A DNA stretch of 64,000 bases. It comes from Brucella grignonensis. Lineage in GTDB: Bacteria; Pseudomonadota; Alphaproteobacteria; Rhizobiales; Rhizobiaceae. Under the pieces are notes generated by a model. That model was not told the origin of the DNA. It did no database searches and saw only the letters and a list, made by a program, of their open reading frames with translations. The translations under genes were made by a program, and so were the position numbers. Location: the NCBI RefSeq assembly GCF_002252505.1, contig NZ_NNRL01000143.1, forward strand, positions 62,001 through 126,000. The letters run 5' to 3'. Positions 600 to 48,867 of the stretch are shown in pieces (within the stretch, counting starts at the first letter, position 1; every line of letters begins with the position of its first letter).

Positions 600-616
600 C
601 TTAAGTTTACCTTAAG
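600..616. promoter_or_regulatory. CTTAAG-N5-CTTAAG box 1 (PmrA/QseB-type site)
   Basis: Half-sites CTTAAG at 600-605 and 611-616 are separated by five bases. A plausible -10 element (TACGAT, 626-631) lies about 10 bp downstream, so the box would cover the -35 region, the usual position for an activating OmpR-family regulator. It is 95 bp upstream of the YggS-family gene. The same box occurs six more times in this window. The regulator is probably the response regulator at 22499-23164, although that gene lies 22 kb away. Confidence 0.7.
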
Positions 617-711
617 GTGGGCTGTTACGATCTAGAAGAAAGCTTATCGACGAATTGGGAAGCGTGGGTATTTTCTGCTGATGCGCCGACATTCTTGAAG
701 AGGGGATTGTA

Positions 712-1377
712 ATGACGCTCTCAAGCATCCTTCCTCAGATCGCTGACGCCGAACGTAGCTGCGGCCGACGGAGCGGTTCAGTTACTGTAGTTGCGGTTTC
801 CAAGCTTCAGCCACTTGATAGGGTGCAAGCGGCGCTGGCAGCCGGTCATCGAGAATTTGGCGAGAACTACGTAAAGGAGGCCGCGGAAAAGTGGCCCTTG
901 CTTCGCGCAAAGTATCCGGACACTCGGCTCCACCTGATTGGCCCACTTCAGTCCAACAAGGCAAAGGCGGCAGTGGGATTGTTTGACGCGATTCACAGTA
1001 TTGACAGAATTTCTTTGGCTGTCGCCTTGGCGAAGTCTGTTCAGGCAAGTGGCACATGTCCGCAGTTGTTTGTTCAGATCAATACGGGTGGTGAACCACA
1101 GAAGGCAGGTATCGCTAGCGGTGCTGCAGATCAGTTCATCGCCGAGTGCCAGCGGTTAGACCTTCGGGTATTGGGTTTGATGTGCATCCCACCATCCGGA
1201 CAGGAGCCGATTCCCCATTTCCAAATGCTTGCTGATATTGCCGCCCGGAACGGTTTGTATGGCTTGTCGATGGGAATGAGTGGTGACTTTAAGGCCGCCA
1301 TATCACTTGGCGCAACCCATGTACGTATCGGTTCTGCCGTTTTTGGAGAACGCAGTACGAAAGAGCCTAAGGAGTAA
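712..1377 (+). CDS. YggS/PROSC-family PLP-binding protein
   Basis: This 221-residue protein has the hallmarks of the YggS (PLPBP) family, a single-domain TIM-barrel protein that binds pyridoxal 5'-phosphate and helps PLP and amino-acid homeostasis in the cytoplasm. Visible motifs are the PLP lysine in VAVSK (Lys31), FGENYVKEA, HLIGPLQSNKAK, a C-terminal MSGDF and the phosphate-binding HVRIGSAVFG. The length matches the family. It is a probable accessory paralogue rather than the housekeeping copy, because its neighbours are unrelated to the usual proC/pilT context. It precedes the unknown gene at 1444 in the same direction with a 66-bp gap. A CTTAAG operator lies upstream. Confidence 0.85.
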   Translation: MTLSSILPQIADAERSCGRRSGSVTVVAVSKLQPLDRVQAALAAGHREFGENYVKEAAEKWPLLRAKYPDTRLHLIGPLQSNKAKAAVGLFDAIHSIDRISLAVALAKSVQASGTCPQLFVQINTGGEPQKAGIASGAADQFIAECQRLDLRVLGLMCIPPSGQEPIPHFQMLADIAARNGLYGLSMGMSGDFKAAISLGATHVRIGSAVFGERSTKEPKE

Positions 1378-1443
1378 GTGCCGGGCGCAATTAGAACAAT
1401 GGCACAAGATCCAAGACGCCAAATAAGTGAAGGGGGAGGATCC

Positions 1444-2772
1444 ATGCGCACTTTGGCATTCACGGAGCTGTATCGCAACAATCATATTATTCTCCCAAAG
1501 CAGGATGAACTAAAAATCGCTGAGTCCATTGCTTGGCGAATAGTGCCATATTTTCCACGACGCGGTCGAATGGCATGGTACCGCCTGAAAACACCCGTGG
1601 CCAGTTTAACAGCCGAGGGACGCCTGCTTTCGGGTGTAAAACTGAAAGGACTTGGTGCCTACAATCCACCGGTGGAGGGTCGTGGGCGAGACGCAATTCT
1701 CGATTCCTTCGCTCAGGACCCGGTGCAGCCGACCACCTTACCGTTATCCAGTTTCGCAACTTATCCTCATCTGGGCTTCGATGTGAAAGGTGAGTTAACG
1801 GTGTCGCTTGGTGCTACCGCCCCTGTCGGTGGCATCGTGGTAGAGCGCGCGACCCGGGAATATCTGACAGCACAGAGGTTGATAGAACGGGGGGTCTCAT
1901 CGATTGAGCCTTATCTCGTCGTCCACTATACAGAATTGAATGCTTTTGCGGATCAGCCGCTGGGCGCGGTCGTATCATTGACGCCCGACGCGGCCCCCTA
2001 CAGAATATCTGAAGTTCAGACGGGTGCCGCGCTCTCTTTAGGACGCGACAGCGAGCGAGACGAATATTATCTTCGGATTCTGAAGGCACTTGAAATCAAT
2101 GGTGATCCTGCGTCGGAAGTCACGCGCCTCAATGCGGTTGCCTCCCTCGCCTTCAAAGTTGCCAATGCCATGCGGCAATTCTCTGCTGCTGGCTTATATC
2201 GCTACTCAGCCGAGTTTCCGAACTTCGATTTCGATTTTAGGCATGCTGAGGTGGTGTTCACCGATCTGGATTCTTCCCTTTTCCTCGACGGCTTGGAGCC
2301 GCCCGCTCGGGCTCGTCAGATCCTCAGGGACGCGGCGTCGATGATTTATCACCTAGTGGCGAAGTTTTCGGGACCCACGGCTCTGGGTGCCTACACAATT
2401 AAAGCACTTCTTAAATCCGATCCAATCTATGCGGCCCTCCGCGGCTATTTCCATCAATTAAATGAAGATGATGCGAAGCGTGTTTCGCAACGCCTTTGGC
2501 AACTCTATCTACCACATTTTTATCTTCTCAATATGCACAGGGATAGAATTATTGGCGAATGGAGCCAAGAGCGCCGACGAAGTTACAAGATGGATCACCA
2601 CCTGTTCTTTCTAGCTGTTATGTATTTCTTTTTACGGATTGCTGAGCGCGCAGGTGATCGCGAGGATCTGATAGATAATAGTCTCACCAGCGATCAATTC
2701 ATGGGCATGGCCGAGCGTTTCCTCGGTCAACGGTTCGAGTATCTGGAGTACGCAGTCGTTGGCGTGTTGTGA
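1444..2772 (+). CDS. Unrecognised 442-residue protein, possible kinase-like fold
   Basis: A strong ribosome binding site (AGGGGGAGGA, 1431-1440) selects the ATG at 1444 rather than an upstream in-frame GTG. No signal peptide or membrane segment is evident. The N-terminal half has a pattern resembling a kinase N-lobe: GGIVVERATREY, then a helix and YLVVHYTEL, a hinge-like strand. The middle has NFDFDFRHAEVVFTDLDSS, which could be a degenerate catalytic/metal loop. The C-terminal 130 residues look helical. I cannot name the family; the kinase resemblance is a weak inference from spacing. It is probably co-transcribed with the YggS-like gene, so it may act on or with a PLP- or amino-acid-related substrate. 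Confidence 0.6.
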   Translation: MRTLAFTELYRNNHIILPKQDELKIAESIAWRIVPYFPRRGRMAWYRLKTPVASLTAEGRLLSGVKLKGLGAYNPPVEGRGRDAILDSFAQDPVQPTTLPLSSFATYPHLGFDVKGELTVSLGATAPVGGIVVERATREYLTAQRLIERGVSSIEPYLVVHYTELNAFADQPLGAVVSLTPDAAPYRISEVQTGAALSLGRDSERDEYYLRILKALEINGDPASEVTRLNAVASLAFKVANAMRQFSAAGLYRYSAEFPNFDFDFRHAEVVFTDLDSSLFLDGLEPPARARQILRDAASMIYHLVAKFSGPTALGAYTIKALLKSDPIYAALRGYFHQLNEDDAKRVSQRLWQLYLPHFYLLNMHRDRIIGEWSQERRRSYKMDHHLFFLAVMYFFLRIAERAGDREDLIDNSLTSDQFMGMAERFLGQRFEYLEYAVVGVL

Positions 2773-2838
2773 TCGCTCAAGCCAAACAAACATCGAACCT
2801 AGGCCTTTTGGAAATGGCTGTGTTCGGGGAGGAAGCCG

Positions 2839-2946
2839 CTGCCTGATCTCACTGTCCAGCCAGCATTTATAGCTGCCGTCATCGTATTGGCTATCACCCC
2901 CGGGCAGGACCTCGCGATGGCGATTACTTGGATCAACACGACATAG
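2839..2946 (+). pseudogene. LysE/RhtB exporter N-terminal scrap
   Basis: An open frame ending at a TAG (2944-2946) encodes AAVIVLAITPGQDLAMAI. This closely matches the first membrane helix of LysE/RhtB amino-acid exporters, whose signature is a hydrophobic run followed by TPGP-D-A. Only about 35 codons remain, with no credible start, so it is a truncated remnant. A complete LysE-family gene lies at 46381-47019 in this window, so a gene of this type was once probably part of this cargo. Confidence 0.5.
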
Positions 2947-2965
2947 TGCGCGCGTTAAGTAATCG

Positions 2966-7792: not shown

Positions 7793-8676
7793 CACGCAGG
7801 TCTCCCCTGCCAACCGACAAAGCTTGACGGCCCGCCATAGGCAGCGTGGCGCTCCGGATCGATCACGAAGCCAAAACGACCGACGCGATATTCATCCAGA
7901 GGGACGAGAAAGCGACGTTCCTCGGCGCCTGGCCCACGCCTGCCACCGGGAACAGCGACGACCTCGGTGAAGCCGGGTTGGTGATCGCAGACGATCGCCG
8001 ACACCACGATCCAGTCATCGTGGTGCTTCGCGAAGAAAGCACGCTCATCCTTCTTCCGGGATTCACCGGGTGCAAGCACGCTGTTTGTGATCGCTTCCCA
8101 AGCGTCCGGGAAGCTGTCCTTCATGGTCTTCTCGGCGGCACGACGCTCGAAGCTGGTAAACAAATGCGGGAAGCTGAACGCGATGATCGCCCACGCCTCA
8201 TCCTCTTCATAAGCGGCGCCAACGGCCCGGATCGAGTGATGGACCTTGCCGTTGCGATCGGCCGAAAGGAGAAATCCACCATGGCCGGCTGTCGAGTGGA
8301 AGACAACACCGTCGGCATAAACGGTCGCACCTTGCGACTGACCCCAGGGCGTACTCGCACGGGAGCGTTCCTCGCGCCGGCAAAGAGCGACCTTCTCGCG
8401 TTGGTGCTCGGCATTCTCCAGAACCCTTGCCCGGAAGGCAATCTCGTCGGCGAGTTCGCCGCCATGACCATAGAAATCGTCGCGCTTCCATTCCGCCATG
8501 GGCCGGCGAATGCGCCAACCGGTGACAAGATAATGCCGGCCGTCGCGGGCGGGAGCCATGGCGAACGCATGTTCACCGACGAGGGCAACGGGCATGCCAT
8601 CGGCGCTTCGACCAAAGGAAACCCCCAAAAATCCGTGAGTTTGGATGAGATCATGCTCGGGGTTGCGCGCATTCAT
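7792..8676 (-). CDS. Plasmid-block hypothetical protein (DUF7007-like)
   Basis: Start at 8676 (MNARNPEHDL) is chosen because it forms an ATGA overlap with the preceding gene; the frame is open further upstream but out of context. The product has about 294 residues. Visible blocks are FLGVSFG, GRHYLVTGWRI, TPWGQSQGATVYADGV, FHSTAGHGGFLLS and a C-terminal GFVIDPERHAAY. The TPWG and HSTAGHGGF signatures recall the DUF7007 family of alphaproteobacterial plasmids, a tentative match from memory. No known activity. It lies between two small genes with which it overlaps at both ends, so expression is probably coupled. Confidence 0.65.
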   Translation of the reverse strand: MNARNPEHDLIQTHGFLGVSFGRSADGMPVALVGEHAFAMAPARDGRHYLVTGWRIRRPMAEWKRDDFYGHGGELADEIAFRARVLENAEHQREKVALCRREERSRASTPWGQSQGATVYADGVVFHSTAGHGGFLLSADRNGKVHHSIRAVGAAYEEDEAWAIIAFSFPHLFTSFERRAAEKTMKDSFPDAWEAITNSVLAPGESRKKDERAFFAKHHDDWIVVSAIVCDHQPGFTEVVAVPGGRRGPGAEERRFLVPLDEYRVGRFGFVIDPERHAAYGGPSSFVGWQGRPA

Positions 8677-21089: not shown

Positions 21090-22502
21090 TCAGGCGATCG
21101 ATTTAAGAGGATCTTCTTGACGCTGTCGGGGGGAAGCTTTTTCCAAGCAGTCGGTTTGTACTGTATCGGAAAAGCGCAGCTCCGCTCTTAGTCCGCCCTC
21201 GCGACGATTTGCGAGATAAACCTCTCCTCCAATCCGCTTTATGGCGAGATCGGCGATCGCCAGACCAAGACCACTGCCCATTACTGTCTTATTACGGCCC
21301 CGGAAGAATCTGTCGCGAACCTTCGGTAACTCCTCCTCCGGTATGCCCGGTCCGCTGTCATCAATGACGATAGCGAATCCGTCTGCCCCGTTGCGCACCC
21401 AGCAGTGCACCACTCCGTCCCGACCCGAATGCAGGGCGGCATTCTCCAAGAGGTTTCGCGATGCAAGGGTGAACAATGAGGGGTCGACAGAGAGGCAGAT
21501 ACTCGCAAGCGCCTGATCCACCTCGATTGTGGCGGTGTCCGAATAATGCTGATCGATGTCATCCGCCAATTGCCCGAGGATTCTGCCGAGGTTGACATCG
21601 CGTTTGGTCGTTGTGATCTCGCCACTTTCGGTATTCGTCAGATCGGTCAGCTGTCTGACCAGGCGAGACGTCCGATCCACTCCGATCACTATTTGCCGCA
21701 AAGCGTTGCTTCTTATCTCGGGGTCTTCACTTCCTAGCGCTACCTGCGCCTGTGTTTTCAGGCCGGCAATCGGCGTTCGCAGTTCGTGCGCCGCGAAGGC
21801 GGTAAAGTCGCGTTCTCGTTCGCGAGCCGCGCTCACGCGTCCAAACAGCCCGTTCAGTGATCGGATGACGGGTACAATCTCCTTGGGCGTATCGATGTCG
21901 GGTAAGGCACTTAAATCTGATGCCGGACGCGTCTCGAGTGTCCGGGCCATCGCGCTCATCGGAGCGAGACCTTGCCTGACGCTCAACCAGATCAGGCCGG
22001 CCAGGATAGGCAGTATCAGCAACGCGGGGAGCGCAAGCCCCCGGATAACGTCTTCGACCAACCGATCGCGAACGCGCATGTTGTCACCGACGAGCACACG
22101 CATGCCAAGATCAGCATTCGCAACCGCATAAACGCGCCAGATCTCGCCGTCGACCAATGTTTCCGAGAATCCATCGCCACTTTCGGTGAGAGGGGTCGTA
22201 GGCGCTGCGTCCGAGCGACCAACCAGCGTTCCGTTGAACGCCCATATCTGGCAGGAAAGTTGCCGTTCGTAGGACGTATGTTGAGCAGATACGACTGGAG
22301 GAATTTGCGCGGCACGGGATGGGTCGATTTCCTGGCTGGTGATCAGCGAGCTGACCATTCGCGCCGCTTCGATCAATCGCGCGTCGAGAACCCGTTCGAC
22401 CTCCGCTCGCGTGCTGAGATAAATCCATGCAATCGCCGACATCCACACGACGCCTGTGGTGATCATCAAAATGAGGAACAAGCGGCTTCGGATCGATGTC
22501 AT
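21090..22502 (-). CDS. QseC/PmrB-like sensor histidine kinase
   Basis: This 470-residue inner-membrane sensor has one N-terminal helix (about 7-29), a periplasmic domain of roughly 130 residues with one cysteine (ERQLSCQIW), a second helix (about 160-182) and a short HAMP-like linker. The kinase core follows: H-box AAHELRTPIAGLKTQ (phospho-His), N-box NLLENAALHSG, G1 DDSGPGIP and G2 GSGLGLAIA. The H-box sequence is typical of the QseC/PmrB/TctE group. It overlaps the response-regulator gene by 4 bp and is co-transcribed with it. The ligand is unknown; a redox, metal or thiol signal is plausible from the target genes. Confidence 0.85.
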   Translation of the reverse strand: MTSIRSRLFLILMITTGVVWMSAIAWIYLSTRAEVERVLDARLIEAARMVSSLITSQEIDPSRAAQIPPVVSAQHTSYERQLSCQIWAFNGTLVGRSDAAPTTPLTESGDGFSETLVDGEIWRVYAVANADLGMRVLVGDNMRVRDRLVEDVIRGLALPALLILPILAGLIWLSVRQGLAPMSAMARTLETRPASDLSALPDIDTPKEIVPVIRSLNGLFGRVSAARERERDFTAFAAHELRTPIAGLKTQAQVALGSEDPEIRSNALRQIVIGVDRTSRLVRQLTDLTNTESGEITTTKRDVNLGRILGQLADDIDQHYSDTATIEVDQALASICLSVDPSLFTLASRNLLENAALHSGRDGVVHCWVRNGADGFAIVIDDSGPGIPEEELPKVRDRFFRGRNKTVMGSGLGLAIADLAIKRIGGEVYLANRREGGLRAELRFSDTVQTDCLEKASPRQRQEDPLKSIA

Positions 22503-23164
22503 GGCGATTCCTCCGCCAGCCTGTATCCCACACCTCTCACGGTTTCGATGGTAGCAGGGCCAAGCTTTTGCCGGAGGTTATGGATATGGACCTCAATCGT
22601 ATTGCTTTCTACATCCTCTTGCCAGCCATAGAGACGATCTTCCAGGTGGCCCTTGGATAGGATCTGTCCGGGCCGGTCCATCAGCGCGTGCAGGATAGAG
22701 AACTCGCGACGCGACAGCTTTACGGGGTCGCCTGACCTAGAGACCGTCATCATTGCCGGGTCGAGCCGCAACTCGCGCCAAACACGGCAAGCTGAGGCAG
22801 TTCCATTGCCGCGCCGTGTCAGAGCTCGCAATCGTGCGGCCACTTCGTTGAGATCGAACGGCTTGCCGAGATAGTCATCGGCTCCGGCATCAAGACCGGC
22901 AATGCGGTCGGGGATGCTGTCACGCGCCGTTAGGAGCAAAACCGGCGTTGCTACCTTGCGCGCCCGCATTTCGTCGAGGATGTCTAGCCCGGATCCGTCG
23001 GGAAGCATCAGATCGAGGACCACTGCATCGAAAGCTGAGCTATGCAGCGCCGCAGAAGCATCGCCACAGGTCGAAACAGCGTCGACTGTAAAGCCTGCGA
23101 GGCCGAGACCGACCTGCAAGCCGTTCAATAATACTGCATCGTCTTCGACCACTAGAACTCTCAT
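22499..23164 (-). CDS. PmrA/QseB-like OmpR-family response regulator
   Basis: The start MRVLVVEDDAV at 23164 is preferred over a longer frame because it aligns with the usual receiver-domain start and gives the standard 221 residues. Receiver: the acid pair EDD and the phosphoacceptor Asp51 in VVLDLMLPDGSG, TARD, and Lys in YLGKPF. DNA-binding winged helix: LSRREFSILHALM, SNTIEVHIHNLRQKLG and the terminal TVRGVGYRL. A CTTAAG-N5-CTTAAG box, the site type bound by PmrA and QseB, lies 47 bp upstream in the divergent region with dsbA, so the protein probably regulates both itself and dsbA. It is the best candidate regulator of all seven boxes. Confidence 0.87.
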   Translation of the reverse strand: MRVLVVEDDAVLLNGLQVGLGLAGFTVDAVSTCGDASAALHSSAFDAVVLDLMLPDGSGLDILDEMRARKVATPVLLLTARDSIPDRIAGLDAGADDYLGKPFDLNEVAARLRALTRRGNGTASACRVWRELRLDPAMMTVSRSGDPVKLSRREFSILHALMDRPGQILSKGHLEDRLYGWQEDVESNTIEVHIHNLRQKLGPATIETVRGVGYRLAEESP

Positions 23165-23211
23165 AACACCTCTTGTTACCTCCGACAGAAGATCTGCCAT
23201 TCACCCGCGAC

Positions 23212-23228
23212 CTTAAGCCAGCCTTAAG
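23212..23228. promoter_or_regulatory. CTTAAG box 2, between regulator and dsbA
   Basis: Half-sites at 23212-23217 and 23223-23228, five bases apart, sit in the divergent region 47 bp from the response-regulator start and 71 bp from the dsbA start. Each half is itself palindromic, so one box can serve both directions. This is the most direct clue that the adjacent two-component system owns this motif. Confidence 0.8.
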
Positions 23229-23299: not shown

Positions 23300-23938
23300 A
23301 TGCCAGCTATCACGCGCCGCGGCGCCATAATGACCTTCGGTGCCGCTGCCCTCGCGGTACCGCTTATGCATCGGACAGCTCTTGCGCAGTCTGCCGACGT
23401 GTCCAAGGAGATGATCCTCAACGACCCTGCCGCGCCGACGGCCGGCAACCCAAAGGGTGACGTGACCATCGTCGCTTTCCTCGACTACAACTGCCCATTC
23501 TGCAAAAAGTCTGCGCCCGATCTTGACCGCATCGTTAAGGAAGACGGCAAAATTAGGCTGGTCTATAAGGACTGGCCCGTCATCCGGCCGACCTCGATCG
23601 ACGGAGCTATGATGGCGCTCGCTGCCAAATATCAAGGCAAATACGATATCGCTCACCACGCACTGATGGGTATCCCGGGATCGGGGGTCGCCAAGGACAA
23701 AATGCGTCAAGGCTTGCAGGCAGCGGGCATCGACATGCGACGCCTCGATGCCGACATGAAGTCGAAGGCCGCAGACATCGACGCCATCATCAAGCGCAAC
23801 ATGGCGCAAGCCGATGCGATCGGTTTCCAAGGTACTCCGGCCTACCTCGTAGGCCCGTTCCAAACCTCGACCCTCGACTATCAGGGTTTCAAACAGGTTG
23901 TGGCGGATGCGCGCAAAAAGCAGGCGGAGGGGCAGTGA
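23300..23938 (+). CDS. DsbA-family periplasmic thiol oxidoreductase
   Basis: The product has 212 residues. The N-terminus (MPAITRRGAIMTFGAAALAV...ALAQ) is a Tat-type or twin-arginine-like signal, cleaved near residue 30, so the enzyme acts in the periplasm. The thioredoxin fold carries CPFC at 65-68 and a cis-proline in GFQGTPAYLV, with the helical insert between them. The CPFC pair and overall length match DsbA/ScsC-like proteins. It lies divergent to the two-component system with operator box 2 between them and is followed by the convergent SQR gene. DsbD at 29829 could keep it reduced, in which case it would act as an isomerase or reductase. Confidence 0.87.
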   Translation: MPAITRRGAIMTFGAAALAVPLMHRTALAQSADVSKEMILNDPAAPTAGNPKGDVTIVAFLDYNCPFCKKSAPDLDRIVKEDGKIRLVYKDWPVIRPTSIDGAMMALAAKYQGKYDIAHHALMGIPGSGVAKDKMRQGLQAAGIDMRRLDADMKSKAADIDAIIKRNMAQADAIGFQGTPAYLVGPFQTSTLDYQGFKQVVADARKKQAEGQ

Positions 23939-25214: not shown

Positions 25215-25240
25215 GATTATCCTCCCACTTGCAGAGTCTC

Positions 25241-25276
25241 ATATCTTATTATATGTAATTATGTAATTCATATTGA
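25241..25276. promoter_or_regulatory. AT-rich divergent region between SQR and blh
   Basis: A strongly AT-rich stretch, in sharp contrast to the surrounding GC-rich DNA, includes ATATG...CATAT inverted arms (25251-25273) and two tandem ATGTAATT units. Repressors of the BigR/SqrR (ArsR) type, which sense persulfide and control blh operons elsewhere, bind AT-rich palindromes, so this may be such an operator. No BigR gene lies nearby, and no CTTAAG box is present, so this pair of genes appears to be regulated separately. Confidence 0.45.
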
Positions 25277-25297
25277 GGATCGTCAAGGAGCTGCCGT

Positions 25298-27443: not shown

Positions 27444-27446
27444 GAA

Positions 27447-28612: not shown

Positions 28613-28938
28613 CTCTGCGATCTTATTACTGCCGACGCGACGTCAGCTCACCCGGCCGTCGCGATTCGGATGCGCCCAGTTCTATGTCGAAGTCTGGCTA
28701 AGCGAAAGCAATTCGTGCCAGAGCAGCCGGCGGAACAGTCGCTGCGACCGGGTAGGCGTATGTGATGCGCTGCGAGTTGGTGCGGCGTGCAACTGGTCGG
28801 CCCAGGGATTCCGACGGTCGGAAAGTCATCACAGGCGGTCAGATCACGGTCGGCGTCAGATCTCTTAATCCTGCCTTAAGCTTGCACCGCAAGTGACGTG
28901 AGCGTTTACGGTTCAAGATATTCTGATTGGTGACTGAA
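28613..28938. promoter_or_regulatory. CTTAAG box 3 in the 326-bp gap upstream of the DsbG-like gene
   Basis: The box CTTAAT-N5-CTTAAG lies at 28864-28880, 58 bp before the DsbG-like start at 28939. It has the only half-site ending in T, still within the consensus known for PmrA boxes. The rest of the gap (28613-28863) shows no gene and no clear structure, so the AhpD operon probably ends here and a new transcription unit starts. Confidence 0.72.
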
Positions 28939-29721
28939 ATGAAAATGGCTTTGCTCGCAGCCGCCTTCGCAGTGACGCTTGCTGGTTGCAATGATAATGC
29001 TGGCCCGCAATCCAGCAACGGATCCTCCGGAAACGAAGCGATCTTGCAATCGCTTAAGAACCAAGGCGTCACCGTTCATGGCCCCCTGAATGTGCCGGGT
29101 GGGCTCGCGGCATTTGCTGCTAGCGCGGGCACTCAGCCACTCGCCGTTTACATCCTGCCAGATGCAAAATACGCATTGATCGGCACTCTGATCGATGCCC
29201 AGGGCGTCTCCGTTGCCGACGCGGAATTGAAGCGCGTCGTGAGCGAACCGATGGAGCGGGAATCTTGGGCAGCGCTTCAAGCGGCAGCCTGGGTGCAGGA
29301 TGGAGATCCGAAAGCGGGCCGCATTGTTTATGCGTTCACAGACGCGAATTGCCCCTATTGCAATGAGCTATGGCGCTCCGCGCGCCCGTGGGTAGAGGCC
29401 GGAAAGGTGCAGATTCGTCACGTCATGGTGGGTGTCATCCGAGAGGATTCACCCGGCAAGGCCGCGGCGATCCTCGAAGCATCCGACCCACAGGCTGCTC
29501 TCACTCAAAATGAACGGGATCACGATAAAGGTGGCATTGCGCCTCTCAAGACCATTCCCGCCGAGACGAGCGCCAAGCTCAACAGCAATGTTGAACTGAT
29601 GAGGCGACTGGGTTTCAGCGGCACGCCAGGGCTGGTGGCTCAAGGTAGCAACGGCGCACTTACCCTGCAATCAGGTGTGCCCCGCGGGGCTGGGCTTGAA
29701 GCGGTCTTCGGACCCCTCTAA
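28939..29721 (+). CDS. DsbG/DsbC-like thiol isomerase lipoprotein
   Basis: The ATG at 28939 gives 260 residues with a lipoprotein signal (MKMALLAAAFAVTLAGC, acylated Cys17). The N-terminal region resembles the dimerisation domain of DsbC/DsbG. The thioredoxin domain has CPYC (138-141) in FTDANCPYCNELW and a cis-Pro near FSGTPGLV. In this family the enzyme is a periplasmic disulfide isomerase or a protector of sulfenylated cysteines, kept reduced by DsbD. The lipid anchor is unusual compared with soluble E. coli DsbG. Operator box 3 is directly upstream and the DsbD gene follows 107 bp downstream. Confidence 0.83.
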   Translation: MKMALLAAAFAVTLAGCNDNAGPQSSNGSSGNEAILQSLKNQGVTVHGPLNVPGGLAAFAASAGTQPLAVYILPDAKYALIGTLIDAQGVSVADAELKRVVSEPMERESWAALQAAAWVQDGDPKAGRIVYAFTDANCPYCNELWRSARPWVEAGKVQIRHVMVGVIREDSPGKAAAILEASDPQAALTQNERDHDKGGIAPLKTIPAETSAKLNSNVELMRRLGFSGTPGLVAQGSNGALTLQSGVPRGAGLEAVFGPL

Positions 29722-29767: not shown

Positions 29768-29784
29768 CTTAAGTCTGCCTTAAG
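29768..29784. promoter_or_regulatory. CTTAAG box 4 upstream of dsbD
   Basis: Half-sites at 29768-29773 and 29779-29784 are separated by five bases and lie 44 bp before the GTG start of the DsbD gene. The box should drive the dsbD-tlpA unit, possibly reading through to the L,D-transpeptidase at 32572. No stem-loop terminator is visible between the DsbG-like gene and this box. Confidence 0.78.
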
Positions 29785-29828: not shown

Positions 29829-31682
29829 GTGTCGTTGCTTGCAAGAACTGTCTGGACCCTTTTTGTCGCTGTCGTGATGACTGCCCTGGTGGCGATCTCG
29901 ACGGCTCCCGCTTCTGCGCAAGTGACGTCGACCGGAGCGATGCCGCTGCCCGTCGATCAGGCGTTTCAGCTCTCCGTCACCCGCCAGGATGACGCGAGCG
30001 TAAAGCTTCAGTGGAAGATCGCGCCCGGCTACTACCTCTACGAGGACAAGATAGGCGTGAAGCGGGGCGACGCCGACATTGCGGTTGGCGATCTTCAGGG
30101 CAATGGGCAGAGCAAGGACGATCCGACATTTGGCCAGTCCACCGTCTTTCACGATCACGTTGCCGCCGTGGTTCCTGGGAACGCCTCTACCTCGAGCCCC
30201 CTCGAAGTTCACTATCAGGGCTGCCAGGACGACGGCATCTGTTATCCGCCGATGGTCCGGCATGTCGACGTGACGACACTCGCCATTACCGATCCCGATC
30301 AGCATGATCCTGCCACCCTCGCCAATGACTGGACAGCTCCAGTCTCGACGGCGCCGGCAAGCGGCATCGCGATCGCAGCTGACAATGGCGGCATGATTGG
30401 ATCTCTTCTGAAGGACGGCGGTGTCCTGATGGTATTGGGCAGCTTTATGCTGTTCGGTGTGCTGCTTGCTTTTACACCGTGTGTGTTTCCCATGTATCCG
30501 ATCCTGGCCGGTGCCATCGCTCGACAGGGCGAGGCAGTAACGCCGCTTCGGGGCTTCACGCTTTCTGTCGCTTATGTGCTCGCCATGGCGACAGCATTCG
30601 GCCTGCTAGGCGTGGTCGCTGCCTGGTCCGGCCAGAACCTTCAGATGGCGTTGCAGTCGCCCATCGCTATCGGCGCGGTCTCGGCGCTCTTCATCATTCT
30701 GGCGCTCTCCATGTTCGGCCTCTTCGAGTTGCAACTCCCCTCGTCCTGGGTCAACGCAATCGGTGGCCTTGGCAGCGGTAATCGCGGCTCGATCGCGTCC
30801 GCCGGCCTGCTCGGCTTCACGTCGGCGCTTATCGTAGGGCCTTGCGTCACCGCACCGCTCGCGGGCGCGCTGATCTATATTGCTCAGACAGGCGACGTCG
30901 CTCTTGGCGCAGCGTCGTTATTCGCACTCGGCCTCGGCAAGGGCATTCCGCTGATTGCCTTCGGTACGCTCGGTCCGAAAGCCCTTCCAAAGGCGGGGGG
31001 ATGGATGACGGCGGTGCGACAGGCGTTCGGTTTCGTTTTTGTGGCGACCGCCATCTGGATGGTCTCCCGCATCATCCCGGCGGAGGCCGGTCTCGCGCTT
31101 TGGGCGCTCTTCGCGATAGGGCTGGCCGTCTGGCTCGGGGCGTTCGACACGCTCGGTCCCGACGCCGGCGGCCGGCGCCGGACCGCAAAAGCCGCCGGGC
31201 TGGCGGCAGCACTCTACGGCATCGCCCTTGGTCTCGGCGCTGCAAGTGGCGGCAATGATCCCCTCCGGCCGCTCGGCAACCTCGTTGCGCAACGGGGAGG
31301 CAGCGGTGCGGGTGAGGAATTGTCTTTCCGTACGGCCGGCACCTCGGCGGAGCTCCAGACGCAGATCGCGGCCAGCGACGCCAAGCCAAGCCTTCTCTAC
31401 GTCACCGCTGACTGGTGCGTCACCTGCGCTGTCATCGACCGCAGCGTCTTCCCCGACCCGGCAGTTCAGGCCGACCTTAACCGCTTCAATCTCATCAAGC
31501 TCGACGTTTCCGGCAACACGCCAGCGCAGCAGCAGATCATGCGGAGCCTGCAGGTCGTCGGACCGCCGACGATGATTTTTGTCGACAAACAAGGACGCGA
31601 GACAGCGGGAACCCGACTGGTCGGCGACGTCACCAAGACGACCCTGCGAGCTTCCGTCGAAAAGACGGGGATCGCGCGATGA
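29829..31682 (+). CDS. dsbD: Thiol:disulfide interchange protein DsbD
   Basis: The GTG at 29829 follows CGGGAG; the product has 617 residues. It has a signal peptide (cleaved after SAQ), a periplasmic alpha domain with YYLYEDKI and CQDDGICYPP (cysteine pair), about eight membrane helices with TPCVFPMYPIL and VGPCVTAPLAG (the two membrane cysteines), and a C-terminal thioredoxin domain with ADWCVTCAVID. All six redox cysteines of the electron relay are present, so the protein should carry electrons from cytoplasmic thioredoxin to periplasmic partners: the DsbA-, DsbG- and TlpA-like enzymes around it. It overlaps the TlpA-like gene by 4 bp. Confidence 0.9.
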   Translation: MSLLARTVWTLFVAVVMTALVAISTAPASAQVTSTGAMPLPVDQAFQLSVTRQDDASVKLQWKIAPGYYLYEDKIGVKRGDADIAVGDLQGNGQSKDDPTFGQSTVFHDHVAAVVPGNASTSSPLEVHYQGCQDDGICYPPMVRHVDVTTLAITDPDQHDPATLANDWTAPVSTAPASGIAIAADNGGMIGSLLKDGGVLMVLGSFMLFGVLLAFTPCVFPMYPILAGAIARQGEAVTPLRGFTLSVAYVLAMATAFGLLGVVAAWSGQNLQMALQSPIAIGAVSALFIILALSMFGLFELQLPSSWVNAIGGLGSGNRGSIASAGLLGFTSALIVGPCVTAPLAGALIYIAQTGDVALGAASLFALGLGKGIPLIAFGTLGPKALPKAGGWMTAVRQAFGFVFVATAIWMVSRIIPAEAGLALWALFAIGLAVWLGAFDTLGPDAGGRRRTAKAAGLAAALYGIALGLGAASGGNDPLRPLGNLVAQRGGSGAGEELSFRTAGTSAELQTQIAASDAKPSLLYVTADWCVTCAVIDRSVFPDPAVQADLNRFNLIKLDVSGNTPAQQQIMRSLQVVGPPTMIFVDKQGRETAGTRLVGDVTKTTLRASVEKTGIAR

Positions 31683-32482
31683 ACGCCGTCAGCATCGGCC
31701 CGTTCGTTTTTGCCACGGACCAGTTCGCGGCTCTACTCGGGATATTCGCCTTCACCATCGTGACATCGATCCTGTCTCGCAGAATCGACCCTGTGATCGG
31801 TCGATGGTCGACATGGGCGTTGATCGGCGGGTTGGTCGCAGCAAGGCTCGGTCATGTCGCGCTACATTGGCAGAGCTTCCTAGACGAGCCATGGCGGGTG
31901 ATTGCATTCTGGCAAGGCGGTTTCCAGCCGGTAGCAGGTCTGATCGGGGTCGTGATCGTCAGCGCACTCTTTATCCGATCGTTGAGAGCTGGTCTGGGCG
32001 CATCGGCCGCACTCGGCCTCGCGGTGGTCATCTGGATCGGGGTCGCAGAGCTGACGAGGGCGACCCTGGGGCAGCCCGCACCGACGATTGCCCTGCAGCA
32101 GATGGACGGCCCGCCCATCGCCGTCAGCGACGTTATCGGCAAACCCGCCGTCGTCAACCTCTGGGCAACCTGGTGCCCACCGTGCCGGAGGGAGATGCCA
32201 TTGCTGGCTGAAGTGGCAGCGAGCCGCGACGATGTCTCCTTCCTGTTTGTCAATCAGGGTGAAGGGACGGAAAAAATCCGGTCCTATCTGACGTCCGAAG
32301 GTCTGAAACTTGATCGCGTCCTACTCGACCAATCGATGCAGATCACCCGACATTACGGCGCGATGGGACTTCCTATCACCCTCTTCCTCAGAGCCGATGG
32401 AACGCTCGCATCCCTGCATATGGGTGAAATCTCGCGCGAAGCTCTCACCGCCAATATCGAAAAACTCGCCGGCCCGTCCTGA
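31679..32482 (+). CDS. TlpA-like thioredoxin fused to an LGT-like membrane domain
   Basis: The product has 267 residues. Residues 1-125 form four membrane helices with a pattern close to prolipoprotein diacylglyceryl transferase: ARLGHV, then PWRVIAFWQGGFQPVAGLIGV, which resembles the W-GG-GG segment of Lgt but lacks its catalytic histidine. Residues 130-267 form a TlpA/ResA thioredoxin domain with WCPPC (165-169) and a cis-Pro in MGLPITLFL. It overlaps dsbD by ATGA, so the two are made together; DsbD probably reduces it. Related fusions are described as TlpA/ScsD-like reductases. The Lgt-like half is likely a membrane scaffold. Confidence 0.82.
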   Translation: MNAVSIGPFVFATDQFAALLGIFAFTIVTSILSRRIDPVIGRWSTWALIGGLVAARLGHVALHWQSFLDEPWRVIAFWQGGFQPVAGLIGVVIVSALFIRSLRAGLGASAALGLAVVIWIGVAELTRATLGQPAPTIALQQMDGPPIAVSDVIGKPAVVNLWATWCPPCRREMPLLAEVAASRDDVSFLFVNQGEGTEKIRSYLTSEGLKLDRVLLDQSMQITRHYGAMGLPITLFLRADGTLASLHMGEISREALTANIEKLAGPS

Positions 32483-44368: not shown

Positions 44369-45055
44369 TCAGCGCACGACGATCTTCGCGCCGGGCTTTA
44401 CGCGAGCGTGAAGGTCTATGATGTCCTGATTGAGAAGGCGGATACAGCCGGCGGAGACGGACTTACCGATCGAAGACGGGTCGTTAGTACCATGGATACG
44501 GTAATAGGTGTCGACCCCATTCTGGTGCATGTAGAGCGCACGCGCGCCCATCGGATTGTGGGGACCTCCGGCAACGCCGCCAGCGTTACGCGCGTATTGC
44601 TTCGGATTGCGCTTGATCATGTTCTGTGTCGGGGTCCAGCGCGGCCATTTTGCTTTCCATGCAACCTCGGCCTCACCGCCCGGAAACGCGCGCGCCACAG
44701 GGCCGACGCCGACTGCATAGCGGATAGCCTTGTCATCGGGCAGCACGAAATAGAGATAACGCGCCGTCTGATCGACCACGATAGTTCCGGGTGCCTCGTC
44801 TGTCCGATAGTGGACGACCTGCCGTACATGCTCCAGCTTCATGCGGGTCGCATCCACGGCCGAAATGGTATGGCCGCCATCTTTTCTCGCGGCATACATT
44901 TCCGTCGGGTTACCTCCCACAGGCCAGATAGCTGATGCGGCTTCCGACTGCGTGTTTTCGAGCGGCGCGGCGACGGCCGCACCCGGTGCTTGCCAGCAAA
45001 CCGCAAGTGCGACGGACGATGCGAGCGCAAGCGAAGTCGCGTGCTTGAATTTCAA
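44369..45055 (-). CDS. L,D-transpeptidase (ErfK/YbiS type), copy 2
   Basis: No good ATG exists. A TTG at 45055 gives a clean signal peptide (MKFKHATSLALASSVALAV); a TTG at 45088 would add 11 residues in front. The domain has GTIVVDQTARYLYFVLP, KAKWPRWTPTQNMIKR, GARALYMHQNG, YRIHGTND and the catalytic SAGCIRLLN. It makes 3-3 cross-links in the periplasm. It is the second of three related copies in the window. A CTTAAG box (45113-45129) stands upstream in the divergent region with the YafK-like gene, so both are likely switched together. Confidence 0.83.
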   Translation of the reverse strand: MKFKHATSLALASSVALAVCWQAPGAAVAAPLENTQSEAASAIWPVGGNPTEMYAARKDGGHTISAVDATRMKLEHVRQVVHYRTDEAPGTIVVDQTARYLYFVLPDDKAIRYAVGVGPVARAFPGGEAEVAWKAKWPRWTPTQNMIKRNPKQYARNAGGVAGGPHNPMGARALYMHQNGVDTYYRIHGTNDPSSIGKSVSAGCIRLLNQDIIDLHARVKPGAKIVVR

Positions 45056-45112
45056 TATAGGCAAGGAACCCCCGATGACGATGTTCAACAGGGATGCGCA
45101 TTGCCGGTGATT

Positions 45113-45129
45113 CTTAAGGCTGCCTTAAG
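45113..45129. promoter_or_regulatory. CTTAAG box 5 between two L,D-transpeptidase genes
   Basis: Half-sites at 45113-45118 and 45124-45129 with a five-base spacer. It is 57 bp from the minus-strand start at 45055 and 35 bp from the plus-strand start at 45165, so one box can serve both genes. Confidence 0.8.
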
Positions 45130-45164: not shown

Positions 45165-46322
45165 ATGACCACTTCTGTGCATTTCAGCGAACCCCACGCG
45201 GTCCTGCGACGGCCTGAGAGTCGGTTGGAAAAGAGCGGTCTTGACGCCGTTTGGAGGCTGGCTGATTTGGATTTGAAACTTATAGAGCGTCGCGCCTTAC
45301 TTCGGACTTTGATGGGCTCGGTGACCCTGTTAGGAGCCGCGGCGCTGTCAGGATGCCAGACCGGCTTCCTGCCCGATGTCACTACCAAGGCAAATGCTCC
45401 AATTCCCCCGAAGCTGCTTGCCGACATCCGGAAGAAGAACATGTCCGTCGGCTCGCCGATCCTGTTGCGCGTGTTCAAGGTCGAAGCAGAGCTGGAGGTC
45501 TGGAAACAGGATCGCAAGGGCCGTTTCGCTCTTTTGAAAACTTATCCAATCTGCAAATGGTCGGGCGATCTCGGCCCGAAGATCGCCGAAGGCGACCGGC
45601 AGACACCTGAGGGCTTCTACGACATTAGGCCCGGTCAGATGAACCCGGACTCGGAATACTACCTTTCCTTCAATCTCGGCTTCCCGAATGCCTTTGATCG
45701 TGCCCATGGGCGCACCGGCACGCATCTCATGGTGCATGGTGATTGTTCGTCCCAGGGCTGCTACGCGATGACCGACGCGCAAATCCTCGAAATCTTCGCG
45801 CTCGGCCGGGAATCGTTTTCCGGTGGACAGAGGTCGTTTCAGGTGCAGGCTTATCCATTCCGTATGACGCCTACGAACCTGGCCCGGCATCGCAACAGTC
45901 CGCACCTGCCTTTCTGGCGCATGCTGAAGGAAGGCAACGACCATTTCGAGGTCACGCGCCGCCAGCCCAAGGTCGATGTTTGCGACAAGCGCTATGTGTT
46001 CAACGCGATCGGACCTGGAGATGGGACTACACCGATGAACTTCGATCCGCTTGATTCATGCCCGGCCTATGAAGTGCCGCAGGCTATCGCTCAAGAAGTG
46101 CGGAAAAAGCAGCGTTCCGATGATCAGGAGTTCGAGCGGCTCGTCGCACAGGGTGCAGAGACAGCTCCCATCAAGAGCGGTCGCGATGGTGGCATGCACT
46201 CCTTCTGGGTAGATAAGTTGCGGCCCCGCGAAATCGTCGATCAGCACGGCAACCTTAAGCTGGTTGTCGACGGGACCAATGCAGCTCCGTTTAACGCCTA
46301 CAAGTCTCCCACAAGACCGTAA
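45165..46322 (+). CDS. YafK-type L,D-transpeptidase-like lipoprotein
   Basis: The product has 385 residues. A hydrophobic segment with SGC (Cys64) and ERRALLRTLMGS before it is probably a lipoprotein or Tat signal; the first 45 residues are unusual for a signal, so the true start may be internal. The catalytic domain has LLRVFKVEAELEVWKQ, TPEGFYDIRPGQ, HLMVHGDCSSQGCYAMTD with His191 and Cys199, the YafK/DpaA type. In E. coli, DpaA (YafK) is reported to remove Braun lipoprotein from peptidoglycan. It therefore may counter the other copies. Divergent from copy 2 with a shared box. Confidence 0.8.
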   Translation: MTTSVHFSEPHAVLRRPESRLEKSGLDAVWRLADLDLKLIERRALLRTLMGSVTLLGAAALSGCQTGFLPDVTTKANAPIPPKLLADIRKKNMSVGSPILLRVFKVEAELEVWKQDRKGRFALLKTYPICKWSGDLGPKIAEGDRQTPEGFYDIRPGQMNPDSEYYLSFNLGFPNAFDRAHGRTGTHLMVHGDCSSQGCYAMTDAQILEIFALGRESFSGGQRSFQVQAYPFRMTPTNLARHRNSPHLPFWRMLKEGNDHFEVTRRQPKVDVCDKRYVFNAIGPGDGTTPMNFDPLDSCPAYEVPQAIAQEVRKKQRSDDQEFERLVAQGAETAPIKSGRDGGMHSFWVDKLRPREIVDQHGNLKLVVDGTNAAPFNAYKSPTRP

Positions 46323-47019: not shown

Positions 47020-47053
47020 ATCGTTTAGCTCTCCCCGGATCGGCTATGGACGA

Positions 47054-47773
47054 TCACCCCACCATGAGGTGGCTCATGGACGGATCCGCGATGACGACGA
47101 TCCCGCTTCCTTCGCGCACATTCTCGGCAAGGTGGATCACATCCTGATTTATCATGCGGATACATCCGGACGACACAGCCCGGCCGATGGTCCAGAACTC
47201 CGGGTTGCCATGAATGCGGTAGATCGTATCCCGGTTGCCCTCATGGATGTAGAGCGCGCGTGCCCCCAGAGGATTGTTCAGCCCCGGGGCCATGCCGCCG
47301 TTCGCGATGCTGACCGGTTCGAGCTCCGGCTGGCGGGCAACCATCTCGTCGGGCGGATTCCATCGCGGCCATGCTCGCTTGTAGGCGATGTGGCGGCCTC
47401 GGCCGGCCCAGGAAAAGCCGTCCCTACCGACACCGACGCCGTATCGGGTCGCACGACCGTAGGGCTGGATGTGGTAAAGATATCGGTTGGGTGTATCGAC
47501 AACCACGGTGCCGACCTTTTCATCGGTCGGATAGTCTACCTCAGTGCGCCACCACTTAGGATCGACCTTGGAAACATCGACTTCCGGGATGGGAAACTGC
47601 TCGTTGGGCATGGCGTAGTACATGGGGGGCGTTGCCAGGCGTGGAGTTTCAACCTGCGCAACGGGCTGCGGCTGTCTCGCTGTGGTGGTACAGCCAGCCA
47701 GGGCGAATGCTCCAGCCCCAGCAAGAAAAGTGCGCCGGGCAATGGCGCCGGAGGGCCGACTCTGCGAACTCAA
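47054..47773 (-). CDS. L,D-transpeptidase (ErfK/YbiS type), copy 3
   Basis: The product has 239 residues. The N-terminus (IARRTFLAGAGAFALAGC, Cys28) combines twin arginines with a lipobox, so export by Tat as a lipoprotein is possible. The domain has GTVVVDTPNRYLYHI, KRAWPRWNPPDEM, GARALYIHEGN, YRIHGN and SSGCIRMINQ (Cys204). It is the third of three related enzymes in the window. Box 6 (47824-47840) is 50 bp upstream in the divergent region with the esterase gene, and the LysE gene follows downstream. Confidence 0.85.
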   Translation of the reverse strand: MSSQSRPSGAIARRTFLAGAGAFALAGCTTTARQPQPVAQVETPRLATPPMYYAMPNEQFPIPEVDVSKVDPKWWRTEVDYPTDEKVGTVVVDTPNRYLYHIQPYGRATRYGVGVGRDGFSWAGRGRHIAYKRAWPRWNPPDEMVARQPELEPVSIANGGMAPGLNNPLGARALYIHEGNRDTIYRIHGNPEFWTIGRAVSSGCIRMINQDVIHLAENVREGSGIVVIADPSMSHLMVG

Positions 47774-47823
47774 AACATGTCCTCGTATTTTCCCGTTGAA
47801 TATTCGCAGGACACCGGGTCAAC

Positions 47824-47840
47824 CTTAAGCCCACCTTAAG
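47824..47840. promoter_or_regulatory. CTTAAG box 6 between L,D-transpeptidase 3 and esterase
   Basis: Half-sites at 47824-47829 and 47835-47840 with a five-base spacer. It lies 50 bp from the minus-strand start (47773) and 41 bp from the plus-strand start (47882). Both genes should respond together. Confidence 0.8.
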
Positions 47841-47881
47841 GCAAAAAGGATCGATCGCCGCATCACGGAGAACTGAGAGGA

Positions 47882-48841
47882 ATGGGGTTGAGCTTGAGTA
47901 CACGAGGCATTTGGCGAGATATCGCCTGTTCTAGCGAAGACGCTCATGCTCGTCGTTTCGTTTTACGATCGCTGTCAAAAAGCTTTGCGGCGCTTCTATT
48001 TGTCGCTGTTTCTACCATTGGCGCGAATGCCGCGTGCAACACCGTCAATCCCCTCACGGTACCCCTGCCCGATCCCGCTTCCGGCCGTCGATATGAGATC
48101 TACGTCAGTCTTCCGGACGGCTACGCCGCTAATCCGAGCAAAAGCTATCCGCTGCTCATTCTGGCAGATGGTGGCCGCGCCTTTCCCAAGCTCAGTTGCG
48201 ATGTCCGCGCCCTTGCCAAAAGCGGCGCTATCGGCGAGGAGCCGGTCGTCGTCGGGCTTTCCTACGCGATCGGCGAGGATTTGGAGGACAGCCGGCGACG
48301 GGACTACACACCTGTCGCGGATGGTCCGACAAGCAGGGTCTATGGCGGCGCGGCAGCTTACCAAACCTATCTGCGCAACGTCGTCCTTCCCCATGTCGGG
48401 CGTCACTACCGGACTGATCCCGCGCGCCGCGTGTTCTGGGGCCATTCCTATGGTGGACTGCTCGGCGCACATATCCTCCTCACGGAACCCGGTCTATTCC
48501 AGACCTACCTTATCGGAAGCCCTTCGCTCTGGTTTGCCAATCACGCCATTTACGGTTTCGATGAGGCATACGCGAAACGAAACAAACAGCTGGATGCGAC
48601 CGTGATTCTCTACGTAGGCGGATTAGAAATCTCCCGCTACGATCCTTCCCGGAAAGGCAACACGCGCGATATGGTTGCAGGCGTTCAGGCGTTCGTGTCG
48701 CGGCTGTCTGCGCATGGCTATAGCGGCTTGCAGCTGCGTTCCTCCGTCATCGCGGGAACGGATCATCGCAGCTCGGTGCGTCCAGGCTTTGCCTGGGCTT
48801 TGACGCAGGCACTAGCTTTGCACGCGATCGCGGGTCGATAG
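47882..48841 (+). CDS. Secreted alpha/beta-hydrolase (esterase D / Fes-like)
   Basis: The 319-residue protein has an N-terminal hydrophobic segment (SFAALLFVAVSTIGANA) after a longer-than-usual basic region, so it is exported; a later start is possible. The catalytic domain has YEIYVSLPDGY, LLILADGG, GHSYGGLLGAH (serine nucleophile) and TDHRSSVRPG (histidine). This is the esterase D/enterobactin-esterase-like group, hydrolysing esters in the periplasm. It shares box 6 with L,D-transpeptidase copy 3, so it may remodel cell-wall or envelope esters. Confidence 0.8.
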   Translation: MGLSLSTRGIWRDIACSSEDAHARRFVLRSLSKSFAALLFVAVSTIGANAACNTVNPLTVPLPDPASGRRYEIYVSLPDGYAANPSKSYPLLILADGGRAFPKLSCDVRALAKSGAIGEEPVVVGLSYAIGEDLEDSRRRDYTPVADGPTSRVYGGAAAYQTYLRNVVLPHVGRHYRTDPARRVFWGHSYGGLLGAHILLTEPGLFQTYLIGSPSLWFANHAIYGFDEAYAKRNKQLDATVILYVGGLEISRYDPSRKGNTRDMVAGVQAFVSRLSAHGYSGLQLRSSVIAGTDHRSSVRPGFAWALTQALALHAIAGR

Positions 48842-48850
48842 TTTTCGACC

Positions 48851-48867
48851 CTTAAGCCTGCCTTAAG
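48851..48867. promoter_or_regulatory. CTTAAG box 7 upstream of the thioredoxin-like gene
   Basis: Half-sites at 48851-48856 and 48862-48867 with a five-base spacer, 9 bp after the stop of the esterase gene and 40 bp before the ATG at 48908. The thioredoxin-like gene thus has its own box rather than relying on read-through from the esterase. Confidence 0.8.

What the first reader, a model, noticed from the sequence alone, without database searches (positions are those of the whole stretch)
600..48867. A seven-site CTTAAG-N5-CTTAAG regulon linking a two-component system to thiol redox and L,D-transpeptidases
Seven intergenic sites have two CTTAA(G/T) halves exactly 11 bp apart: 600-616, 23212-23228, 28864-28880, 29768-29784, 45113-45129, 47824-47840 and 48851-48867. 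The spacers are alike (consensus near CCTGC). By chance, 12 fixed bases at this spacing are expected about 0.004 times in 64 kb. PmrA and QseB are known to bind such boxes (established), and a PmrA/QseB-like regulator gene lies beside box 2. Every box sits 35-95 bp from a start codon: regulator/dsbA, DsbG-like, dsbD-tlpA, two L,D-transpeptidases, L,D-transpeptidase/esterase, an exported thioredoxin and the YggS pair. This defines a coherent envelope regulon I do not know described.
Basis: partly seen in the sequence, partly recalled or inferred. Interest (0 to 1): 0.93.

Follow-up and report, generated by a model that had tools for sequence, protein, structure and literature searches.

The report
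Plasmid-borne copper-type thiol and cell-wall regulon
A bacterial plasmid carries a sensor switch and matching DNA control sites in front of genes that look after sulfur chemistry and cell-wall cross-linking in the cell envelope; the switch resembles a known copper sensor, but its apparent control of cell-wall enzymes was not found described.

Summary
Observation confirmed: all seven boxes lie where stated; the 10-base core is expected 0.01 times per window. Genome-wide there are 11 exact boxes plus the T variant. Nine of these 12 lie on contig C44, a repABC plasmid with transfer genes; one lies before a second, chromosomal copy of the two-component system.

In 151 family genomes, 23 of 23 with a regulator orthologue (>=60% identity) have an exact box, against 14 of 128 without (p=7e-18). 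Boxes adjoin the regulator, dsbD, DsbA/DsbG-like genes and L,D-transpeptidases.

The system misses the curated PmrAB and QseBC cut-offs. It groups with the Pseudomonas-type DsbRS-dsbDEG copper system (reviews): same divergent layout and operon parts, a kinase cysteine aligned with residue 82 of a Pseudomonas DsbS in 30 of 30 Dsb-linked kinases and 0 of 62 others, one branch of the tree, and the same 11-bp half-site step.

Verdict: a real, conserved DsbRS-type regulon, extended to L,D-transpeptidases and often on plasmids. DNA binding and the copper signal are inferred. Box 1 (yggS) is the weakest member.

The parts
600..616 (.). Box 1, CTTAAGTTTACCTTAAG, before yggS
   Evidence: weakest member: off-consensus spacer, no yggS counterpart among boxes examined
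712..1377 (+). YggS-family PLP protein
   Evidence: TIGR00044 161.8 bits, cut-off 106.25
21090..22502 (-). DsbS-like sensor histidine kinase with Cys84 in the sensor domain
   Evidence: 2CSK_N, HisKA, HATPase_c; Cys84
22499..23200 (-). DsbR-like OmpR-family response regulator (likely start at the internal ATG, residue 13)
   Evidence: Response_reg, Trans_reg_C; alignment to PmrA begins at residue 13
23212..23228 (.). Box 2 between regulator and DsbA-like gene
   Evidence: regulator box conserved in relatives
23300..23938 (+). DsbA-like exported thiol oxidoreductase (CPFC)
   Evidence: DSBA, Thioredoxin_4; CxxC
28864..28880 (.). Box 3, CTTAATCCTGCCTTAAG, before dsbG
   Evidence: T-type box also before dsbG in G127 (L084)
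28927..29721 (+). DsbG
   Evidence: NCBIfam DsbG 284.4 bits, cut-off 124
29768..29784 (.). Box 4 before dsbD
29829..31682 (+). DsbD
   Evidence: NCBIfam DsbD 511.9 bits, cut-off 330
31679..32482 (+). DsbE/TlpA-type thioredoxin with Lgt-like N-terminal part
   Evidence: AhpC-TSA, Redoxin, LGT; same make-up as Pseudomonas DsbE in L251
32572..33234 (+). L,D-transpeptidase, last gene of the dsbD run
   Evidence: YkuD 82.3 bits, cut-off 23.4; active-site motif
44369..45088 (-). L,D-transpeptidase
   Evidence: YkuD 78.4 bits; active-site motif
45113..45129 (.). Box 5 between two transpeptidase genes
45165..46322 (+). Weak L,D-transpeptidase-like protein
   Evidence: YkuD 25.9 bits, cut-off 23.4; active-site motif not found by my pattern
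47054..47773 (-). L,D-transpeptidase
   Evidence: YkuD 55.2 bits; active-site motif not found by my pattern
47824..47840 (.). Box 6 between transpeptidase and esterase
   Evidence: box before the homologous transpeptidase in G127 (L087)
47882..48841 (+). Esterase-like protein
   Evidence: PF00756
48851..48867 (.). Box 7 before the exported thioredoxin
48881..49438 (+). Exported thioredoxin-like protein (CAFC)
   Evidence: Thioredoxin_7; CxxC
49527..50879 (+). c-type cytochrome, downstream of box 7
   Evidence: Cytochrom_C
50876..51787 (+). SoxA/TsdA-like c-type cytochrome, downstream of box 7
   Evidence: PF21342, PF00034

Best explanation
This is a DsbRS-type two-component regulon. The sensor kinase (21090-22502) senses copper, or the thiol damage that copper causes, in the periplasm through Cys84 and phosphorylates the DsbR-like regulator (22499-23200). 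The regulator, as a head-to-tail pair like PmrA, binds the two CTTAAG half-sites 11 bp apart and activates the promoters just downstream. It switches on its own operon, dsbD-dsbE, DsbA/DsbG-like genes, an exported thioredoxin and L,D-transpeptidases. Together these keep periplasmic thiols correctly reduced and paired, and renew or protect cysteine-dependent transpeptidases that copper inhibits. The window's copy rides on a repABC plasmid that also carries sulfur-oxidation genes; a chromosomal twin uses the same box. Shown: boxes, their conservation and link to the regulator, gene families, phylogeny, the cysteine. Inferred: DNA binding, activation, copper as the signal, the purpose.
For: Box and regulator go together: 23 of 23 against 14 of 128 genomes. 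Box-adjacent ORFs fall into transpeptidases (29 box-ORF pairs), DsbD/thioredoxin (25), regulators (24), DsbA/DsbG-like (12). Of 10 named plasmid or megaplasmid loci read (of 44 found), 9 have an exact box starting 37-63 bp before the regulator match. P. fluorescens P5A has the same divergent layout, regulator-kinase facing dsbD-dsbE-dsbG. Kinase Cys: 30 of 30 Dsb-linked, 0 of 62 others. One side of a branch, SH-aLRT 98. Five of eight PmrA DNA-contact residues identical. Reviews: DsbS binds copper, DsbR induces dsb genes (passages); copper(II) inhibits L,D-transpeptidases (passage). A chromosomal box precedes a 136-aa ORF and cueO.
Against: No binding or expression data. The cueO box is absent in the two same-genus genomes that have cueO. 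The plasmid carries sulfide/persulfide genes, which suit another signal. Boxes at window 600 and C44:47183 adjoin genes with no such role recognised. Family genomes without the regulator still have 19 boxes. Of the 62 'other' kinases 12 have a gap at the Cys column rather than another residue. The copper role of Cys82 and the TTA-N8-TTAA site are recalled, not read.
Confidence: 0.75

Rival explanations
1. Same regulon, but the signal is sulfide, persulfide or another thiol-reactive sulfur species: the sensor cysteine is modified by polysulfide, and the regulon supplies periplasmic reductant for sulfur oxidation and repairs persulfidated transpeptidases.
For: Between boxes 2 and 3 lie an SQR-like protein (below cut-off), Blh above its cut-off, and TauE. 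The plasmid has SoxB-like and SoxA/TsdA-like genes. Blh and/or YeeE-TauE genes lie beside the locus in 3 of 6 named plasmid stretches that carry annotation (L256, L257, L262).
Against: P. aeruginosa DsbRS is described as copper-responsive (passages). The locus also occurs without a listed sulfide cluster in 3 of those 6 stretches (L258, L259, L261).
Confidence: 0.3
2. A PmrAB- or QseBC-type regulon responding to iron, membrane-active peptides or catechol-type signals.
For: The best solved-structure relatives are BasR/PmrA; box geometry and most contact residues match PmrA; NCBIfam's best hits are PmrA and QseB/QseC.
Against: All miss the curated cut-offs: PmrA 234.2 of 330, QseB 217.6 of 345, QseC 236.2 of 475, PmrB 130.5 of 314. 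Targets are thiol and transpeptidase genes. The tree puts the system with Dsb-linked kinases.
Confidence: 0.08
3. The plasmid and chromosomal regulators share one regulon: the plasmid copy cross-regulates the chromosomal boxes and the reverse.
For: The two regulators are 69% identical and the boxes are of one kind on both replicons. G127 also has two regulators, each with boxes on its contig. Precedent: an ICE-borne CusRS cross-talks with core CopRS, regulators 69% identical (passages).
Against: No direct test. It adds to, rather than replaces, the main explanation; 21 of the 23 regulator-bearing genomes have one orthologue listed at >=60%.
Confidence: 0.45

Closest known systems
DsbRS-dsbDEG copper-sensing two-component system of Pseudomonas (Yu et al. 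2022, Sci. Bull., doi 10.1016/j.scib.2021.03.003; paper not held, known here through passages in PMC10141476, PMC9233671, PMC12802237, PMC13101516 and PMC11195947)
   Same: Regulator-kinase pair facing a dsbD operon; dsbD, DsbE (Lgt-like plus thioredoxin part) and dsbG all present; kinase cysteine aligned with residue 82; half-sites 11 bp apart; one branch in the tree.
   Different: Half-sites CTTAAG here, GTTAA-type in P. fluorescens P5A. L,D-transpeptidases are a regular neighbour and target here; none was recognised in the 9.5-kb P. fluorescens locus. dsbG, dsbD-dsbE and DsbA-like genes have separate boxes. Often on plasmids, many boxes per replicon.
PmrA (BasR) of Enterobacteriaceae and its CTTAAG-N5-xTTAAT box (PMC3973317, abstract and passages)
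   Same: Box geometry; five of eight named DNA-contact residues identical.
   Different: Curated cut-off missed; different targets.
QseBC
   Same: Kinase sensor-domain family and second-best regulator family. The CTTAA-type QseB site is recalled, from no call.
   Different: Curated cut-offs missed; QseC-like kinases in the tree lack the cysteine.
Accessory CusRS with core CopRS in Pseudomonas (PMC11195947, passages)
   Same: A horizontally acquired system whose regulator is 69% identical to a core one and acts on the same sites.
   Different: Different regulator family, targets and site.

Membership tests
DsbRS-dsbDEG system | Regulator-kinase genes divergent from dsbD with dsbE and dsbG | tested here: met
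   Chromosomal copy and relatives: dsbD faces the regulator across the box. In the window dsbG, dsbD and dsbE are in a row but about 6 kb from the regulator, which faces a DsbA-like gene.
DsbRS-dsbDEG system | Sensor-domain cysteine at the DsbS Cys82 position (role recalled) | tested here: met
   Cys84 aligns with Cys82 of P. fluorescens P5A DsbS; 30 of 30 against 0 of 62, 12 of the 62 being gaps
DsbRS-dsbDEG system | Phylogenetic grouping with Pseudomonas DsbRS | tested here: met
   SH-aLRT 98 in a quick tree with P. fluorescens P5A and Alloalcanivorax; P. aeruginosa itself not included
DsbRS-dsbDEG system | DsbR site TTA-N8-TTAA (recalled) | tested here: met
   CTTAAG-N5-CTTAAG contains it; the P. 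fluorescens P5A intergenic stretch does too
DsbRS-dsbDEG system | Copper binding by the kinase and copper-induced expression | not testable with these tools
   Needs bench work
PmrAB | Score above the NCBIfam PmrA and PmrB cut-offs | tested here: not met
   PmrA 234.2 of 330; PmrB 130.5 of 314
PmrAB | PmrA-type box, two TTAA-containing half-sites five bases apart | tested here: met
   against the passage
QseBC | Score above the NCBIfam QseB and QseC cut-offs | tested here: not met
   QseB 217.6 of 345; QseC 236.2 of 475

The most novel reading that the evidence does not exclude
An alphaproteobacterial, plasmid-mobile branch of DsbRS has become a dedicated guard of peptidoglycan L,D-transpeptidases: when copper or persulfide attacks their catalytic cysteine, the cell both repairs periplasmic thiols (DsbD, DsbE, DsbG, thioredoxin) and makes several fresh transpeptidases. 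Plasmids bring extra boxes and targets (cbb3-type oxidase, SoxB-like, sulfur genes) into a regulon shared with the chromosomal copy through one operator.
Probability: 0.4. Interest if true: 0.72.

Novelty: new variant of a known kind. Interest (0 to 1): 0.58.

Why it matters
It would tie together three things usually studied apart: copper sensing, periplasmic thiol repair, and L,D-transpeptidases, which are cysteine enzymes that copper inhibits. It gives an operator that can be read from sequence, so the regulon can be predicted in many alphaproteobacteria and tested in laboratory species. It also shows a regulon carried by plasmids whose operator is kept the same as that of a chromosomal twin.

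Tried and rejected
Relaxed boxes: two-mismatch sites in the own genome are fewer than the reversed-pattern control, so I did not enlarge the regulon that way. C44:7645 (one mismatch, before a SoxB-like gene) is accepted only because exact boxes lie beside its homologues in G127 and Paracoccus indicus.

PmrAB/QseBC membership: rejected on curated cut-offs and the tree.

Caulobacter UzcRS as the relative: the passages of PMC12864828 I saw gave no CTTAA string and name other targets, such as TonB-dependent receptors and an efflux operon; dropped.

A fixed -10 element: a profile of 99 oriented sequences shows few informative positions outside the box (T two bases after it in 72 of 99, A twelve bases after it in 59 of 99); divergent boxes are counted in both directions there, so I draw no promoter model.

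Wide spread in the class: 1 of 288 other class genomes has the regulator at E<=1e-70, and 25 of 288 have a box, with background spacers in 26 of 27. In that sample the regulon is centred on the window's family, with plasmid records and a few others beyond it.

cueO as a core target: not supported; 5 of 23 regulator-bearing genomes have a cueO-like gene at E<=1e-60 and only the own one has a box within two mismatches in the stretch read.

Literature: one search listed 3 papers, one search listed 2, one search listed 15 of 900; by titles and abstract starts none links DsbRS to L,D-transpeptidases. One search (DsbG, YbiS, sulfenic) found none. These cover only the open-access library.

Rows dropped and choices made: the 60% cut was set after seeing the gap to 52%. 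One search skipped boxes in loci L099-L175, and its ORFs are simply the longest ones, some spurious. One search counts box-ORF pairs, a few ORFs twice. Of the 14 box-bearing genomes without an orthologue I had neighbourhoods for 12 (not G009, G113). One search kept 92 of 114 rows (regulator and kinase adjacent); the group labels are mine, the Cys column was not left out of the tree, and L118, L131 and L172, whose loci hold a DsbD- or TlpA-like hit, were counted as 'other' and lack the Cys. One search used the sites that were listed.
Full report
Observation. The seven boxes are present at the stated coordinates, with 0.01 core matches expected in the window by dinucleotide shuffling. The own genome, 4.83 Mb in 169 contigs, has 11 exact CTTAAG-N5-CTTAAG sites plus the T variant at window 28864. 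Nine of the 12 lie on C44, the 129-kb contig that holds the window. The others lie on C50, C53 and C66.

Replicon. C44 encodes RepA-, RepB- and RepC-type replication proteins, a MobA/MobL-type relaxase and a TraG-type coupling protein. It is therefore a repABC plasmid with transfer genes, probably conjugative. VirB-like genes were recognised only by order and recall.

Targets in the own genome. On the plasmid the boxes lie beside: regulator and DsbA-like gene; dsbG; dsbD-dsbE-transpeptidase; two transpeptidase-type genes; transpeptidase and esterase; thioredoxin followed by two cytochromes; a cbb3-type oxidase subunit I at C44:128475 (FixO-type subunit next to the G127 homologue); yggS; and an unrecognised ORF at C44:47183. 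Elsewhere: C66, a second regulator-kinase pair (regulator 69% identical) facing dsbD with a transpeptidase behind it; C53, a transpeptidase homologue; C50, a 136-aa ORF followed by a CueO-type multicopper oxidase (625.5 bits, cut-off 525).

Conservation. Of 151 family genomes, 37 have an exact box and 23 have a regulator orthologue at 60% identity or more; the next hits are at 52% or less. All 23 have a box, against 14 of the other 128 (Fisher p = 7e-18, or 3e-17 without the own genome; 61 against 19 boxes). Of those 14, I had neighbourhoods for 12; in four the box lies beside a transpeptidase gene or fragment of the same kind (G050, G131, G139, G142), and G142 keeps only part of a regulator gene. 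Over the boxes examined, adjacent ORFs cluster into transpeptidases (29 box-ORF pairs), DsbD/thioredoxin (25), regulators (24) and DsbA/DsbG-like (12). In the stretches read for the 23 genomes a transpeptidase is present in 22 and dsbD in 20; G101 and G124 were read over under 4 kb only. Outside the family, 1 of 288 class genomes has the regulator at E<=1e-70 and 25 of 288 have a box; 1 of 27 of those spacers is of the regulon type, against 46 of 59 in regulator-bearing family genomes.

Named replicons. A protein search of the plasmid collection gives 44 records at E<=1e-70, 43 of them at 60-80% identity. I read 10 of the 44, chosen for spread of genera. Nine have an exact box that starts 37-63 bp before the regulator match; Sphingobium has a two-mismatch one. 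dsbD is recognised in 8 of 10 stretches (not L255, L258) and a transpeptidase in 8 of 10 (not L256, which is cut by the record start, nor L258). The kinase cysteine is present in the 9 kinases that aligned there; the tenth, in L257, is annotated as two pieces and was not aligned at that place. Of the six stretches that carry annotation, three have Blh and/or YeeE-TauE genes beside the locus and three do not.

What the system is. The regulator and kinase miss the curated cut-offs for PmrA, PmrB, QseB and QseC. In a tree of 92 joined regulator-kinase rows, the 28 alpha Dsb-linked systems and two gamma ones (P. fluorescens P5A and Alloalcanivorax) form one side of a branch, SH-aLRT 98 (quick search, no bootstrap). 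In P. fluorescens P5A the pair faces dsbD-dsbE-dsbG, the layout described for dsbRS-dsbDEG in that species (passage, PMC13101516). The kinase cysteine is residue 82 there and 84 here; it is found in 30 of 30 Dsb-linked kinases and 0 of 62 others, of which 12 have a gap there. That DsbS binds copper through Cys82, and that the DsbR site is TTA-N8-TTAA, I recall from the abstract of Yu et al. 2022; that paper is not held. Passages confirm that copper binding to DsbS leads to active DsbR and that dsbDEG restores copper resistance (PMC10141476; PMC11195947). The P. fluorescens intergenic stretch has two GTTAA halves 11 bp apart, the geometry of CTTAAG-N5-CTTAAG.

Mechanism. For Klebsiella PmrA, two molecules bind half-sites head-to-tail (abstract and passages, PMC3973317). 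The window regulator keeps five of the eight DNA-contact residues named there, with conservative changes at three. I infer the same binding mode. Copper(II) can inhibit L,D-transpeptidases that use a catalytic cysteine (passage of PMC8630537, citing Peters 2018). That E. coli DsbG protects transpeptidase cysteines is recalled and was not found in the library. A regulon that raises thiol repair and transpeptidases together fits both. The sulfur genes on the plasmid make persulfide stress a serious alternative or second cue.

Two regulators, one box. Plasmid and chromosomal copies carry the same kind of box, so cross-regulation is likely. An ICE-borne CusRS with a regulator 69% identical to core CopR does this in Pseudomonas (passages, PMC11195947). 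Not tested here.

Limits. There are no binding or expression data. ORFs were called by simple scripts. Two plasmid boxes (window 600, C44:47183) have no conserved counterpart among those examined. The claim that the transpeptidase link is undescribed rests only.

Noticed in passing
C44:25587-29348 and 49932-57294 (L077, L078; outside the window): repABC replication genes, MobA/MobL relaxase with BID-type C-terminal domain and a TraG-type coupling protein: the window lies on a plasmid. Pieces of one cbb3-type oxidase cluster sit at both contig ends, as expected if it is circular.
   Followed up: partly
window 23952-28226: SQR-like protein, Blh sulfur transferase/dioxygenase and TauE between boxes 2 and 3; similar to a Bosea plasmid at 76% DNA identity. 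Similar sulfur genes lie beside the DsbRS locus in 3 of 6 annotated named plasmid stretches.
   Followed up: partly
window 1378-2772: 464-aa ORF directly after yggS with no Pfam, NCBIfam or PDB match; third-position GC is lower than in most neighbours.
   Followed up: partly
L061 (G142:C17) around 8400-8840: Only parts of the regulator and of a transpeptidase match between two boxes, which looks like a decaying copy of the locus.
   Followed up: no
L081 8661-10751 (G000:C50): 136-aa His/Met/Cys-containing ORF without a family, then cueO, behind a box that the two same-genus genomes lack.
   Followed up: partly
window 1-227, minus strand, running upstream on C44: Two small overlapping genes that look like a VapBC-type antitoxin and PIN-domain pair, by eye only; no family search was run.
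   Followed up: no
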